DNA of 64,000 nt, taken from NCBI RefSeq assembly GCF_024494645.1, contig NZ_JANHDJ010000001.1, positions 186,001-250,000 on the forward strand, read 5' to 3'. Source of the DNA: Halohasta litorea. GTDB taxonomy: Archaea; Halobacteriota; Halobacteria; Halobacteriales; Haloferacaceae. Position numbers and translations under genes: made by a program. Of this stretch, positions 20,166 through 55,564 are shown piece by piece. Position 1 is the first letter of the stretch; the number at the start of each line of letters is the position of its first letter. The notes beneath the pieces were generated by a model that saw nothing but the letters and a program-made list of their open reading frames with translations, was not told where the DNA came from and did no database searches.

Positions 20166-20379
20166 TTCGTGGGCGGTCGAATGGGATCGACGCGTCCCGT
20201 CGACTGTCCGCTGTAGTGCCGCTGTCGGGGTCAACATAAGTTCGGAAAGTAGCATCACCTACAAAACACTAGTCAATGATATCATTACGATGTAGCTTAA
20301 TCGAATTTATCCAATTACAAATGAGAGGGCAAATCTGAGCAGAAATATAAGATACTCTATGAATATCTCAGTGAGGCAG

Positions 20380-21213
20380 TTATTCAATTATTGCTACTAT
20401 TCCAGTCAGTAACGTTCCGAAAACAAATCCAGTTCCATGAGCAAATATATTAACGAAACTTCCGGATTGGATCACATCAATTGGAATCAGTGCCCAAACA
20501 AATGCACAGACAATTATTCCGAACCCAAGGATTACCACGATGGGATCATTGTATTCCTCCCTCGTCTTTCTAATTTGACTCCAGCTCCTTATCTCATCAA
20601 ATGAGATATATATTGCACTGATCACACTCAGTCCGAAAATCAGTAGAAGTCCTGTTTGAGCCGATAATGTGCCGTGAAGAACTGAGAGGAAGCCCACTGC
20701 TGCCAATCCAACTCCAACTACTGAATGTATGCCCGGCCAGACACCATATCTTCGTGCGACGTATACGCCTATCCCACCCAGTGTCATCCCAGCCAACCCG
20801 CCGATTATACCTGAGAACCCCTTTGAATCTGCGTCACTTGGGAACAACTCATAATGCTGGTAGAGAATACCGTAATCGATAGCAGTTGTAAGGAATGGAG
20901 TGAGAAGTAATAGGGATACAAAGGTAATCCAAAATACTCTGCGTGCATCAACAAAAACTGTCAATAACCAGTACGCAATGCCGACCGTGAGCGTGTATGC
21001 ACCAAGATTGTAGAGCAAGTGTCCGTTACTTCCATGGGTGTATGCTGCTGTCCACGCTGTTACGATACTAGGATCGTTATAGTAGAAGCACAGACCAGTA
21101 TATATCGAATCAGGTGTTAGAAAGTGCAGTGCAGCGAGAATCGTTGGAATACTAATTAATAGTCCGATATCAGACGATGGGAGTTGTTTTACCAGTTGTT
21201 TAGTCTGACCCAT
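20380..21213 (-). CDS. Divergent rhomboid-like intramembrane protease in a low-GC island
   Basis: This 277-residue protein has about seven hydrophobic helices. Rhomboid hallmarks are recognisable: H60 and N69 in AYTHGSNGHLLYNLG, the serine motif GFSG with S134, and the partner histidine H259 in FAHGTGFVFG. It should cleave membrane proteins within the bilayer. The gene and its flanks are far more AT-rich than the surroundings, which suggests recent acquisition. A CTTAAATA box at 21241-21248 (TATTTAAG on the minus strand) lies about 30 nt upstream of its ATG. The family call rests on motifs only. Confidence 0.72.
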   Translation of the reverse strand: MGQTKQLVKQLPSSDIGLLISIPTILAALHFLTPDSIYTGLCFYYNDPSIVTAWTAAYTHGSNGHLLYNLGAYTLTVGIAYWLLTVFVDARRVFWITFVSLLLLTPFLTTAIDYGILYQHYELFPSDADSKGFSGIIGGLAGMTLGGIGVYVARRYGVWPGIHSVVGVGLAAVGFLSVLHGTLSAQTGLLLIFGLSVISAIYISFDEIRSWSQIRKTREEYNDPIVVILGFGIIVCAFVWALIPIDVIQSGSFVNIFAHGTGFVFGTLLTGIVAIIE

Positions 21214-21391
21214 TTGGATAAATAGTTGTTAATGAATCCACTTAAATAGTCATTTGTGTATCAAATATTCCGTCAATAATTTCACATACCTTTTCAGTGT
21301 TCTCCCTGAATAATTAAGTTATGTCTCTTACTGAAGACAGTGAAACAGCGGTATCTGTACGTAGAACGAATTTCCTATCGCAGAATATGAT

Positions 21392-22306
21392 TTATGAATC
21401 GCTGTAGGACCGAACCGAATCGAGTTCATCGACAGTAATATCCTCCGCAAGCGCCCCAGTATCGACCGAGTCGGGGGTTTCACTCGGATACTTCCGCTTG
21501 AAATAGCCGTAGATGTTTGTTAGATCGCGTTCCAGGAGTTCGTCGCTGTTTTCGTGGTCGGTGGGGACCGCTTGGGGCCAATCGAAGATCGTGATCCCCT
21601 CTTCGTCGATGAAGACGTTGTACTCGCTCATATCGCTGTGGACGTATCCCCGCTGGTAGGCTGCGGCCATCTCTTCGAGGATGAGATCCAGGACACCAAC
21701 CACCTGCTCGGATTCGAGTCGCGCACGCGAGAGCTCCGCGCCGTCGAGTTTCTCCATGACGATCGCGTGGCGGTTCTGGTCGACCGGCCGCGGGACCGAC
21801 ACATCGGGGTACAGCCCTTCGAGCGCCTCGTATTCCTTTTCGGCGGCCTTCCGGGCGGTGTAGAGCCACGAGACGTGGTTGTGATCGGCGGTGTACTCCC
21901 GCTCGCGGTCGACTTCGCGGAAGTTCGTATACCCTTCGCGGTGATATTTCAGCGCCAGCGGCTGGAACGACATCGCTTCGTAGACGTCGCTTTCCTTGCC
22001 GACACCCAGCGGTGCGCCGACGCCGTCGATCGTATCGCGCTCTGAGAAGCTCCGTAAGGCGAGTGCGTCGTATCCCTCGAAGGTGAGCTGGTAGCCCTCG
22101 TACTGGATCGTCTTCCGCTGGATGAGCTCGTGTTGCATACAGCGGTCGATGCGGTACTCTATTTCTTCGCTCGTGAGGCTCGCGTACTTCGGGAGTTTCT
22201 CGCGTTGGACCCACTCCGAGAAGCGCATCCCCTGTTCGATCCCCGACAGCAGATAGAAATCCTCGGGTTCGAGGTCCCGAAAGAACGCCGCGACGTTCTG
22301 AACCAT
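21392..22306 (-). CDS. rio2: RIO-type serine/threonine kinase Rio2
   Basis: This 304-residue kinase begins with a Rio2-specific winged helix (FFRDLEPEDFYLLSGIEQGM, YRIDRCMQHELIQRK). The kinase core follows: the ATP loop GVGKESDVYEA, an ALKYHREGYTNFR strand with the lysine, the catalytic loop YVHSDMSEYNVFID, and the metal-binding FDWPQAV. Rio2 acts in small-subunit ribosome maturation. It is full length. The 3' end lies next to the low-GC island, but its composition is normal. Confidence 0.95.
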   Translation of the reverse strand: MVQNVAAFFRDLEPEDFYLLSGIEQGMRFSEWVQREKLPKYASLTSEEIEYRIDRCMQHELIQRKTIQYEGYQLTFEGYDALALRSFSERDTIDGVGAPLGVGKESDVYEAMSFQPLALKYHREGYTNFREVDREREYTADHNHVSWLYTARKAAEKEYEALEGLYPDVSVPRPVDQNRHAIVMEKLDGAELSRARLESEQVVGVLDLILEEMAAAYQRGYVHSDMSEYNVFIDEEGITIFDWPQAVPTDHENSDELLERDLTNIYGYFKRKYPSETPDSVDTGALAEDITVDELDSVRSYSDS

Positions 22307-53106: not shown

Positions 53107-54330
53107 CTACTCGAACTCGTCGAGCCTCGCATAGAGCCCCTGGCGGGTCTCCCGAATCCGCCCGTCGGGGAGTTCGAGGCCGAGTTCGTCGGCCGCCAGC
53201 CGACCCACCCGGTCGGTCGCCTCCGGACGCGTATAGACGCCGAGCCGCCACTGGCCCCGCTGGGCGGTCCGTAAGGCACTGACTAACGGCGACTGGTCGC
53301 CCAGTTTGCGGATCTCGCCGCCGACGACCACGCGGCTGGTCGACTCCCGCATCGTCGGCTCGTCGGGGATTTCGACGATCACATCGGTGGCTGGAATGTC
53401 CGCACGGTCGGCGATTGTCGACTCCAGCTCACGGATCTCCCTATGCTCGGCTTCCAGCAACGAATCGGGGACGTCCTGGAGTTCGGCCCAGACCGCCCGT
53501 TTCAGTAGGCGGCGGCTCCCGTAGCGCTCGGCGAACCCTTCGGTCTCTGGTGTCTGTCGGAGGGCGACGAGCAGGTCGTGGTCATCCATCCGGCGCAGGC
53601 GGTGGGCGTCGATGGCCGTTTCGTCCAGGAGCCGCTCGCTCGCCCGCCGCAACATCGCCTTGCTGATCCGGGCAACGGGGTGCATATAGACGGTCGGGTT
53701 CATCAGGGCGCGGGCGAGCAGTAGGCTCTCGGCGGTCTGGACGTTGCCCGCGTCCAAGACGAGCTCGCCATCGACGAAGGTCAGCTCGCGGATCAGTCGC
53801 TCGGTGTCGATGGTGCCGTAGGGGACGCCGGTATGGTGGGCGTCCCGCACCAGGTAGTCCATCCGGTCGACGTCGAGTTCGCCCGAGACGAGCTGGCCGA
53901 ACTGGCCCTCACCCGCGACGAGACCAGCGATGTGGGTGGGGTCGAGGTCATAATCGCGGAGGATCTCGCCGACCTCGGCGGAGTCTAGGAGTTCCTCGAC
54001 GTCGTCGTGGTATTTGCCCGTGTGGCGGTGGGTGAGTTCCTCGATGTTGTGGCTAAAGGGGCCGTGGCCGACGTCGTGGAGGAGGGCTGCGGCGCGGATG
54101 CGTTCGGCCTGGGTGCCTTCGATGCCGAGTTCGCCCAGCGCGCGGTTGGCGATGTGGTAGACGCCGAGGCTGTGTTCGAAGCGGGTGTGGTTCGCCGAGG
54201 GGTAGACGAGTTGGACCGTGCCCAACTGCTTGATGTGGCGGAGCCGCTGGACCGTGGGGGTGTCAAGCAAGGCCTCGGCGACGCCCTCGATCTCGATGTG
54301 GTCGTGGACGCTATCCTTAATGGTGGCCAT
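53107..54330 (-). CDS. HD-domain phosphohydrolase (dNTPase-like)
   Basis: This 407-residue protein starts with the family's PTVQRLRHIKQLGTVQLVYP and SANHTRFEHSLGVYHIANRA. The HD pair is in AALLHDVGHGPFSHNIEELT (H85, D86), and LDVDRMDYLVRDAHHTGVPY supplies the later Asp. This matches the deoxyguanosine-triphosphate triphosphohydrolase-like HD proteins of archaea (SAMHD1 branch). It may control nucleotide pools. It lies beside the inserted cassette, on the side where pccA would otherwise be its neighbour. Confidence 0.88.
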   Translation of the reverse strand: MATIKDSVHDHIEIEGVAEALLDTPTVQRLRHIKQLGTVQLVYPSANHTRFEHSLGVYHIANRALGELGIEGTQAERIRAAALLHDVGHGPFSHNIEELTHRHTGKYHDDVEELLDSAEVGEILRDYDLDPTHIAGLVAGEGQFGQLVSGELDVDRMDYLVRDAHHTGVPYGTIDTERLIRELTFVDGELVLDAGNVQTAESLLLARALMNPTVYMHPVARISKAMLRRASERLLDETAIDAHRLRRMDDHDLLVALRQTPETEGFAERYGSRRLLKRAVWAELQDVPDSLLEAEHREIRELESTIADRADIPATDVIVEIPDEPTMRESTSRVVVGGEIRKLGDQSPLVSALRTAQRGQWRLGVYTRPEATDRVGRLAADELGLELPDGRIRETRQGLYARLDEFE

Positions 54331-54380: not shown

Positions 54381-54402
54381 CTACTCCAGGACGACCAGCA
54401 CG
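54381..54402. repeat. Distal 22-bp direct repeat (copy of the pccA 3' end)
   Basis: Positions 54381-54402 (ctactccaggacgaccagca then cg) are identical to 55543-55564. On the minus strand they read the last codons of pccA, VLVVLE plus stop. No further biotin-carrier sequence precedes this copy; it adjoins the 3' end of the winged-helix gene. About 21 bp beyond it on the minus strand comes a T5 run (54355-54359), resembling a terminator that would have suited pccA before separation. Confidence 0.95.
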
Positions 54403-54414
54403 CCAGCCCGCTAC

Positions 54415-54825
54415 CTATTCTGCCGAACTATCGTACATCCCCTCGAATGACTGCTCTCCGCGGATTAACTCGTCGACACCCTCCGAAAGCGTGACCTCAC
54501 CGAAAACTGTCGGCCGATAATACGTATATAGGCCGTCCTGTCCTCGGTCGGTGCGTTTTCGCTTCTCGACGAGACTGACGTCGACGAGTTTGTTGAGGTG
54601 GTAATGAAGTGTACTGTCGTCGATTTCCATTGCGTCGGCGAGTTCAGTCGGACTCATCTCATCACCATGCACGAGCCGATAGAGGATTTCGTAGCGAGTC
54701 CGGTGGCCAACAGCCGCGTGCATATCGAGATACTCCGAGAGGCTGAGAATACTCTCTTCCGGAAGGAGGTCTTCCGGATCGGCCGGGAGATCCGCCTTGG
54801 CTGTGTGTGTTCGCTTTGTCGACAT
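54415..54825 (-). CDS. Winged helix-turn-helix regulator (ArsR-like)
   Basis: This 136-residue protein has an acidic N-terminal segment, then the DNA-binding domain: YLDMHAAVGHRTRYEILYRL, HGDEMSPTELADAMEIDDST, LHYHLNKLVDVSLVEKRKRT, and a wing with GLYTYYRPTVFGEVTLSE. No metal-binding cysteines are seen. The start at 54825 is preceded by a TATA-like CGTTTAG (54850-54856, antisense). It is divergent from the NDT/TIR-like gene across ~100 bp and likely controls it. It is part of the direct-repeat-bounded cassette. Confidence 0.86.
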   Translation of the reverse strand: MSTKRTHTAKADLPADPEDLLPEESILSLSEYLDMHAAVGHRTRYEILYRLVHGDEMSPTELADAMEIDDSTLHYHLNKLVDVSLVEKRKRTDRGQDGLYTYYRPTVFGEVTLSEGVDELIRGEQSFEGMYDSSAE

Positions 54826-54894
54826 GGATACACGACGATACGGGGAACACACGTTTAGTCTTTGTCAAGCCAACATCTCCCAAAAACAAGTTCC

Positions 54895-54903
54895 TTTATA
54901 TAC
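54895..54903 (+). promoter_or_regulatory. TATA box of the cassette effector gene
   Basis: TTTATATAC at 54895-54903 is centred about 29 nt before the ATG at 54928, the spacing expected for a leaderless haloarchaeal transcript starting at or next to that ATG. This fixes the start of the gene and rules out the upstream in-frame start. Confidence 0.65.
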
Positions 54904-54927: not shown

Positions 54928-55542
54928 ATGGATATTACGCGAGAGTTGATTTTCAAGCGACTTGGAGACGTGAAATACGACCGATTTCTATTCTATCTGA
55001 TGGGGCCATACAAATCGTTCAATCTCAACTATATCCTCAGCGAAGAGGAGCGAGAACAGATCAGTATCGAGGAGCTACCGGGACCGTTGCGTCGACTGTT
55101 CCAGAACACGGCGGAGATCAATGAGGCTCAGGCGTTCTTGCGGCGGATACAGGGCAAACTCCGGACCGATCCCGGAGTCAATGCGTTTCTGGCTCTTGAT
55201 GTGGATGTCGACACCGACGACATCGATGCAGTGACACAGAGCATCGAGTACACACGGCACAGCAACGCAACTGCGTTCGTGGTTCCGTATCTCGGACACA
55301 ACTTCGGTGTCGGCGAAGAAGCCGGAAGCGTCCTCGAAACGCTCTCGGAGACGCACACCGAGCGACTGGTGTTTGTCCACGAGGCGGACGTAACAAGTGC
55401 CATGATCCAATCTGCGCCTGTTCGCTGGGATCTTCGGATCGAGACGTATGAGTCCGAGGAAGAACTCGTCGATACGCTCCGCCGGTTCGCTGCAGGGATC
55501 ATGCACCGCGAACGTCGGGGTGACCTCAATCAGCTGGACTAA
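54928..55542 (+). CDS. Haloarchaeal protein resembling nucleoside deoxyribosyltransferase/TIR-like folds
   Basis: This 204-residue soluble protein belongs, I think, to a haloarchaea-restricted family (DUF7509). Near the N-terminus it has DRFLFYLMGPYKSFNLNYIL, like the first strand and YLAGP loop of nucleoside deoxyribosyltransferases. Later ATAFVVPYLGHNFGVGEEAG (115-133) resembles the loop bearing the catalytic Glu (here E130) of those enzymes and of TIR NADases, followed by ERLVFVHEADVT. A nucleotide or NAD-glycosyl-type activity, perhaps in defence, is inferred only. The stop abuts the pccA stop. Confidence 0.78.
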   Translation: MDITRELIFKRLGDVKYDRFLFYLMGPYKSFNLNYILSEEEREQISIEELPGPLRRLFQNTAEINEAQAFLRRIQGKLRTDPGVNAFLALDVDVDTDDIDAVTQSIEYTRHSNATAFVVPYLGHNFGVGEEAGSVLETLSETHTERLVFVHEADVTSAMIQSAPVRWDLRIETYESEEELVDTLRRFAAGIMHRERRGDLNQLD

Positions 55543-55564
55543 CTACTCCAGGACGACCAGCACG
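55543..55564. repeat. Proximal 22-bp direct repeat (true pccA 3' end)
   Basis: This is the natural end of pccA: the minus strand reads VLVVLE and the TAG stop at 55543-55545. It is identical to the 54381-54402 copy. Identity begins precisely at the base following the stop of the NDT/TIR-like gene, so the cassette boundary and the gene end coincide. Confidence 0.95.

What the first reader, a model, noticed from the sequence alone, without database searches (positions are those of the whole stretch)
54928..55542. Cassette effector candidate with deoxyribosyltransferase/TIR-like motifs
The protein starts with YLMGPYKSF, like the substrate loop of nucleoside deoxyribosyltransferases, and carries NFGVGEEAG with a Glu where those enzymes and TIR NADases place their catalytic residue. 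Paired with a divergent winged-helix regulator on a cassette-like segment, this suggests a regulated nucleotide- or NAD-cleaving effector, for example in antiviral defence. Function is inferred; the fold similarity is my reading of motifs.
Basis: inference. Interest (0 to 1): 0.6.

Follow-up and report, generated by a model that had tools for sequence, protein, structure and literature searches.

The report
Mobile two-gene cassette with nucleotide-cleaving-like enzyme
In a salt-loving archaeon, a small two-gene cassette (a repressor and a protein resembling nucleotide-cleaving enzymes) has jumped in beside a metabolic gene; the same pair recurs across about half of related species, and its job is still unknown.

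Summary
The ORF is real and exact (54928-55542, ATG to TAA). It belongs to a known Pfam family of unknown function, DUF7509 (E 9e-90), found in 213 of 392 Halobacteria genomes. A profile of 27 diverse members matches a nucleoside-deoxyribosyltransferase profile through its Rcl/DNPH1 branch (hhalign score 36.6; unrelated profiles, shuffles and reversals at most about 25). The catalytic-type Glu is E131 (63 of 63), not E130 (29 of 63). Ser157 matches the phosphate-binding Ser of DNPH1, but the DNPH1 acid Asp80 is replaced by Ser105. TIR reaches only background; SLOG gives nothing. Structure prediction failed (pLDDT 49).

All 167 homologous loci carry the divergent winged-helix gene. The shared promoter holds a conserved 17-bp operator-like site that occurs once in this genome. 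Two congeneric genomes show the empty site: the insert is 1140 bp, low GC, flanked by an exact 22-bp duplication ending at the stop codon of a biotin-carboxylase gene. A few other copies sit at 3' ends of other genes.

Best reading: a mobile, self-repressed module encoding a Rcl-like nucleotide N-glycosidase. A defence role is possible; no defence-island enrichment was found.

The parts
54928..55542 (+). DUF7509 protein (204 aa), the putative Rcl/DNPH1-like effector enzyme
   Evidence: PF24349 E 8.8e-90; 213/392 Halobacteria genomes; remote match to the NDT/Rcl profile
54415..54825 (-). divergent ArsR-like winged-helix regulator (136 aa from ATG at 54825)
   Evidence: HTH_20 E 2.8e-14; present and divergent in 167/167 DUF7509 loci examined
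54855..54871 (+). conserved putative operator TTAGNNNTTNTCAAGCC between the two genes
   Evidence: 65 non-redundant intergenic regions, 1.2-1.9 bits in most core columns; one exact copy in the genome; in relatives 10 of 11 exact sites lie at a DUF7509 locus
54895..54902 (+). TATA-box-like TTTATATA about 26 bp upstream of the DUF7509 ATG (conserved; suggests a nearly leaderless mRNA)
   Evidence: conservation; promoter role inferred
54381..54402 (.). left copy of the exact 22-bp direct repeat CTACTCCAGGACGACCAGCACG
   Evidence: matches the empty-site sequence
55543..55564 (.). right copy of the repeat = last 22 bp of the biotin-carboxylase gene, starting at its stop codon
54403..55542 (.). inserted segment (1140 bp, GC 0.54) absent from this site in G149 and G068 of the same genus
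54994..55011 (+). YLMGPY motif (residues 23-28), equivalent of the NDT Y-x-A-G-P / DNPH1 Y24 loop
   Evidence: M25, G26, P27, Y28 nearly invariant; hhalign sub-alignment FYLMGPYKS ~ IYLAGPLFS
55306..55326 (+). GVGEEAG motif (residues 127-133); E131 = putative nucleophilic Glu
   Evidence: E131 63/63, G127 63/63, E130 only 29/63; aligned to GVGYELG of Rcl
55396..55407 (+). SAMI motif (residues 157-160); S157 = putative phosphate-binding Ser, like S128' of DNPH1
   Evidence: S157 62/62; aligned to SAM(I/V)RG; role of S128 from PMC10603095
55543..57363 (-). flanking target gene, biotin carboxylase / BCCP subunit (insertion exactly after its stop codon)
   Evidence: Pfam hits; empty site
53107..54330 (-). 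flanking HD-domain gene on the other side of the insertion
   Evidence: adjacent to the carboxylase gene in same-genus genomes

Best explanation
This is a mobile, self-contained two-gene module: a winged-helix repressor that most likely binds its own divergent promoter, and a diverged member of the nucleoside-deoxyribosyltransferase superfamily closest to Rcl/DNPH1. Shown: ORF, family, invariant residues, strict pairing, dedicated conserved promoter element, insertion next to the carboxylase stop codon with a 22-bp duplication. Inferred: the DUF7509 protein binds a 5'-phosphorylated nucleotide (S157, G-P loop) and breaks its N-glycosidic bond with E131 as nucleophile. DNPH1's acid Asp80 is a Ser here and the invariant D91 sits where DNPH1 has E55-H56, so the substrate or leaving group probably differs (for example a modified dNMP, or NAD). 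The repressor keeps the enzyme off until a signal, perhaps a virus or a nucleotide imbalance, releases it. An inducible nucleotide-cleaving defence or addiction effector is the role I think most likely (about 0.35 for the role alone; about 0.7 for the superfamily; about 0.9 for the mobile regulated pair). The role is the weakest step.
For: Family PF24349. M25, P27, Y28, F87, A89, D91, Q104, S105, G127, E131, G133, S157 invariant over members down to 22 % identity (counts). hhalign of the diverse profile against NDT+Rcl: score 36.6, 134 columns; Rcl alone 34.0; nulls (64 unrelated profiles, 150 block shuffles, reversal) at most 25.1. Yardstick: NDT against LOG/SLOG scores 36.5 with the same method; receiver-domain control against DUF7509 14.8. 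The comparison sequences are true Rcl (E 2e-38 to PDB 2khz). Divergent regulator 167/167. Operator-like site: one exact copy in the own genome; in relatives one per positive genome, 10 of 11 at the module. Empty site and 22-bp duplication. Atypical GC3. The window's protein is 81 % identical to members in another family (L008, L032) but 77 % to the same-genus copy (L010), while the carboxylase is 91 % identical in that genome: horizontal transfer.
Against: The NDT relation is remote: no PF05014 hit at E 10, no credible hit in PDB sequences; it disappears if Rcl is taken out of the NDT profile (17.6). The AlphaFold models have pLDDT 37 and 49 and Foldseek gave nothing usable. The acid Asp is missing. 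No defence-gene enrichment nearby, no PADLOC family, no copies in phage or viral collections. No activity, binding or infection data.
Confidence: 0.45

Rival explanations
1. Nucleotide-pool sanitation: the enzyme removes a damaged or modified nucleotide, as DNPH1 removes hmdUMP, and the repressor senses that nucleotide. The module spreads because it is useful under stress, not as defence.
For: Closest branch is Rcl/DNPH1, a sanitiser (PMC10603095). No defence-island enrichment.
Against: Patchy and often plasmid-borne, inserted at different sites, unusual for housekeeping; Asp80 and His56 of DNPH1 not kept.
Confidence: 0.22
2. DUF7509 is not an enzyme but a nucleotide-binding sensor that modulates the winged-helix protein; the pair is a signalling switch.
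For: Strict one-to-one pairing and a private operator-like site; the acid Asp is lost.
Against: A full set of polar invariants typical of an active site, including E131 63/63 and D91 60/60; with no other exact site in the genome a pure sensor would have nothing further to switch.
Confidence: 0.13
3. The resemblance to NDT/Rcl is convergent or chance; DUF7509 is an unrelated alpha/beta fold and the motif reading misleads.
For: Probability only 54-67 %; NDT without Rcl and SLOG score like background, TIR at the top of the null; no fold confirmation.
Against: The alignment is collinear over 134 columns with Glu and SAMI in register, above all nulls, and equal to the NDT-SLOG yardstick.
Confidence: 0.22
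4. On mobility: the cassette is not itself a mobile unit but the leftover of a larger integrated element whose integrase was lost.
For: Repeats at 3' ends of protein-coding genes, ending at the stop codon, look like att sites of integrases.
Against: The same two genes alone would have to remain at different target genes (biotin carboxylase here; an IF-2-like gene in L038/L013; a phosphoglycerate-dehydrogenase-like gene in L039).
Confidence: 0.25

Closest known systems
Pfam PF24349 DUF7509
   Same: Full-length member, E 8.8e-90
   Different: Nothing; the Pfam entry assigns no function and no paper in the library names it
DNPH1 / Rcl (2'-deoxynucleoside 5'-phosphate N-hydrolase; PF05014 Nuc_deoxyrib_tr)
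   Same: Order of motifs Y-x-x-G, GVGxExG with Glu, SAxI with Ser; profile score above null
   Different: 204 aa against about 150, with an extra segment between strand 1 and the long helix; Asp80 replaced by Ser105; E55-H56 region replaced by L90-D91; below any sequence-search threshold
TIR NADases
   Same: Glu after a hydrophobic strand; short match in register
   Different: hhalign score 22.2, at the level of the null maximum
Insertion of R-M systems with long, variable target duplication (Nobusato 2000, cited in PMC3031569)
   Same: Small module without a recombinase of its own, flanked by direct repeats of target sequence with variable length (22, 45, 58, 62 bp)
   Different: Repeats here end at the stop codon of a conserved gene; no R-M genes; archaeal
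Toxin-antitoxin type two-gene modules
   Same: Two genes, apparently autoregulated, patchy, often on plasmids
   Different: Genes are divergent, no antitoxin shown; toxicity untested

Membership tests
PF24349 DUF7509 | HMM score above gathering cut-off (27 bits) over the domain | tested here: met
   300.2 bits, residues 5-204 to profile 1-206
NDT superfamily, Rcl/DNPH1 branch | Profile similarity above background | tested here: met
   36.6 and 34.0 against null maximum 25.1; remote, probability 54-67 %
NDT superfamily, Rcl/DNPH1 branch | Recognised by the family's own HMM (PF05014) | tested here: not met
   PF05014 is not among the families matched by any of 27 members at E 10
NDT superfamily, Rcl/DNPH1 branch | Catalytic Glu in G-V/T-x-x-E-x-G | tested here: met
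   E131 invariant, 63/63
NDT superfamily, Rcl/DNPH1 branch | Acid Asp (DNPH1 D80) | tested here: not met
   Aligned position is S105 (61 of 62 Ser)
NDT superfamily, Rcl/DNPH1 branch | Phosphate-binding Ser of the SAMIRG stretch (DNPH1 S128') | tested here: met
   S157 62/62 in SA-x-I; role
NDT superfamily, Rcl/DNPH1 branch | Five-strand Rossmann-like fold | tested here: inconclusive
   Model pLDDT 49, pTM 0.51, no significant Foldseek hit
NDT superfamily, Rcl/DNPH1 branch | N-glycosidase activity | not testable with these tools
   needs an assay
TIR domain | Profile similarity | tested here: not met
   22.2 (diverse TIR_2) and 14.1, within or at the top of the null
SLOG / LOG | Profile similarity | tested here: not met
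   13.7
Known anti-phage defence families | PADLOC HMM hit | tested here: not met
   none for DUF7509
Defence-island gene | Neighbours enriched in defence genes | tested here: not met
   about 6 of 140 neighbour proteins against about 8 of 125 random-region proteins, IS605-type hits left out
Insertion with target duplication | Empty site in a relative equals locus minus insert minus one repeat copy | tested here: met
   G149 and G068
Toxin-antitoxin module | Toxicity of one gene relieved by the other | not testable with these tools
   needs expression

The most novel reading that the evidence does not exclude
A class of minimal integrative cassettes of haloarchaea: two genes, no recombinase, entering at the 3' ends of conserved protein-coding genes while restoring their stop codons, and spreading a new branch of nucleotide N-glycosidases that acts as an inducible antiviral effector.
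Probability: 0.2. Interest if true: 0.75.

Novelty: new variant of a known kind. Interest (0 to 1): 0.5.

Why it matters
It gives a testable function and an active-site map to a family of unknown function present in about half of sampled Halobacteria genomes, shows that it moves as a fixed regulator-enzyme pair, and points to Rcl-like nucleotide cleavage in haloarchaeal stress or virus response. How a 1.1-kb cassette without a recombinase inserts exactly at a stop codon is an open question that sister strains can answer.

Tried and rejected
Single-sequence AlphaFold (pLDDT 37) and an alignment of 50 close homologues (pLDDT 49): too poor; Foldseek on the second gave no hit with E below 0.3. Sequence profiles against PDB: only chance hits. 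The first, shallow homologue profile gave weak, split matches to NDT; only the diverse one joined them. E130 as catalytic residue: rejected (29/63). TIR and SLOG: not supported by the same profile method. Defence island: tested against random regions, no enrichment. Cas12f hits near some loci go with the IS605 OrfB transposase family and were not counted as defence. L029's 166-bp flanking repeat is a native repeat array, not a duplication; L005's and L020's repeats do not end at a gene end and are not used; L079's 376-525-bp repeat is unexplained. The 11th operator hit in relatives (G024, L252) has no module and is chance. No Rfam family in the cassette. No copies in phage records or IMG/VR. 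Empty sites for L038 and L079 could not be sought.

Full report
What was checked. The ORF is at the stated coordinates: ATG 54928, TAA 55540-55542, 204 residues. It is a full-length member of Pfam PF24349, DUF7509, a family without assigned function (8.8e-90); no paper in the library names it. Its neighbour, read divergently, is an ArsR-like winged-helix protein (HTH_20), best started at ATG 54825.

Distribution. DUF7509 is in 213 of 392 sampled Halobacteria genomes, 66 of 86 genera, patchily, and in 34 haloarchaeal plasmid records; it was not found in phage records or IMG/VR. In every one of 167 loci examined, including distant plasmid-borne members about 33 % identical to the window's, the winged-helix gene lies next to it in divergent orientation. 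This is a fixed two-gene module. The loci were selected for DUF7509 only, so the pairing is an independent result.

Is it NDT-like? Close homologues alone gave fragments: GVGEEAG against LGVGYELG, YLMGPYKS against YLAGPLFS, and SAMI...Y against the Rcl C-terminus. With 27 diverse members (22-71 % identity) most pieces join: hhalign score 36.6, probability 67 %, 134 columns, against a combined NDT/Rcl profile, and 34.0 against Rcl alone. Under the same procedure 64 unrelated profiles, 150 block shuffles and the reversed profile reach at most 25.1. NDT against LOG/SLOG, an accepted distant relation (own knowledge), scores 36.5, and receiver domains against DUF7509 14.8. The signal depends on the Rcl branch: NDT without Rcl scores 17.6; TIR scores 22.2; SLOG 13.7. 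The sequences used as Rcl are indeed Rcl (PDB 2khz, 4fyh, 8os9). I therefore hold that DUF7509 resembles Rcl/DNPH1 beyond chance and is probably homologous, but it fails the family's own HMM, and the fold could not be confirmed.

Active site by analogy. In DNPH1, E104 is the nucleophile, D80 the acid, Y24 completes the triad, S98 and S128' of the other subunit hold the phosphate, and E55 and H56 act on water and base (PMC10603095). In DUF7509 the aligned positions are E131 (63/63), S105 (Ser in 61/62), Y/F23, N/T125, S157 (62/62) and L90-D91 (D91 60/60). The missing acid and the invariant D91 suggest a different leaving group or a shifted acid; this is inference.

Regulation. The 102-bp region between the genes contains TTAGNNNTTNTCAAGCC, AAAAC and a TATA box, strongly conserved in 65 non-redundant loci. 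The exact 17-mer pattern occurs once in the own genome, here; in 40 relatives it occurs once in each of 11 genomes, ten of them at this module, the eleventh being chance. In the exact search of relatives the reversed pattern occurs in four genomes, once each, so the background is low but not zero. The simplest reading is an operator used only by this module; binding is not shown, and part of the element may be promoter.

Mobility. In two genomes of the same genus the biotin-carboxylase stop codon is about 55 bp from the HD-domain gene. The window equals that site plus 1140 bp plus a second copy of 22 bp beginning exactly at the carboxylase stop codon. The insert has GC 0.54 and its genes GC3 0.62-0.65 against 0.86-0.87 in both flanking genes, and the encoded protein is closer to members from another family than to the copy in the same genus. 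Of 113 non-redundant flanks, further clear repeats are at L038/L013 (58-64 bp, 3' end of an IF-2-like gene by my reading of its sequence), L039 (45 bp, 3' end of a phosphoglycerate-dehydrogenase-like gene by my reading) and L023/L017 (58-62 bp). In L038, L013 and L039, as here, the repeat ends at the stop codon. Mismatched left/right pairs reach a local alignment score of 22 in 1000 trials, and at most a 15-bp exact match in 600 trials. Long, variable target duplications are described for R-M systems (PMC3031569 citing Nobusato 2000). Most loci show no repeat, so insertion of this kind is occasional or the marks decay.

Defence? Neighbours of 54 loci gave about 6 PADLOC-type proteins of 140 sampled (IS605 left out), random regions about 8 of 125. 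There is no positive evidence for defence beyond the module's life-style (mobile, self-repressed, patchy). I keep an inducible effector as the likeliest role at modest confidence, with nucleotide-pool sanitation close behind.

Noticed in passing
window 20251-21500: Stretch of low GC (0.36-0.47) with a 282-aa open frame on the minus strand (20383-21228, GC 0.43) in a 0.64-GC window; looks like another recent acquisition.
   Followed up: no
L202 (G606), between the HD-domain and carboxylase genes: The same intergenic site holds about 200 bp of extra DNA in a third same-genus genome, so this spot may accept insertions repeatedly.
   Followed up: no
L079 (Halomicroarcula rubra), flanks of the module: Direct repeat of 376-525 bp on both sides of the module, containing a hairpin-like tgccccgcg...cgcggggca; perhaps a duplicated element end.
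   Followed up: no
L154-L168: A conserved haloarchaeal family hit only weakly by PF05014 looks TIR-like (NSDVVVAVLT...WINQEIGYA) and links NDT and TIR profiles (that NDT profile already held some of these sequences, so the value there is inflated; an independent TIR_2 profile matches NDT at 96.6 %).
   Followed up: partly
L013 (G140): Copy of the module with an in-frame TAG near the start of DUF7509, inserted at the same IF-2-like gene end as L038; probably a decayed copy.
   Followed up: partly
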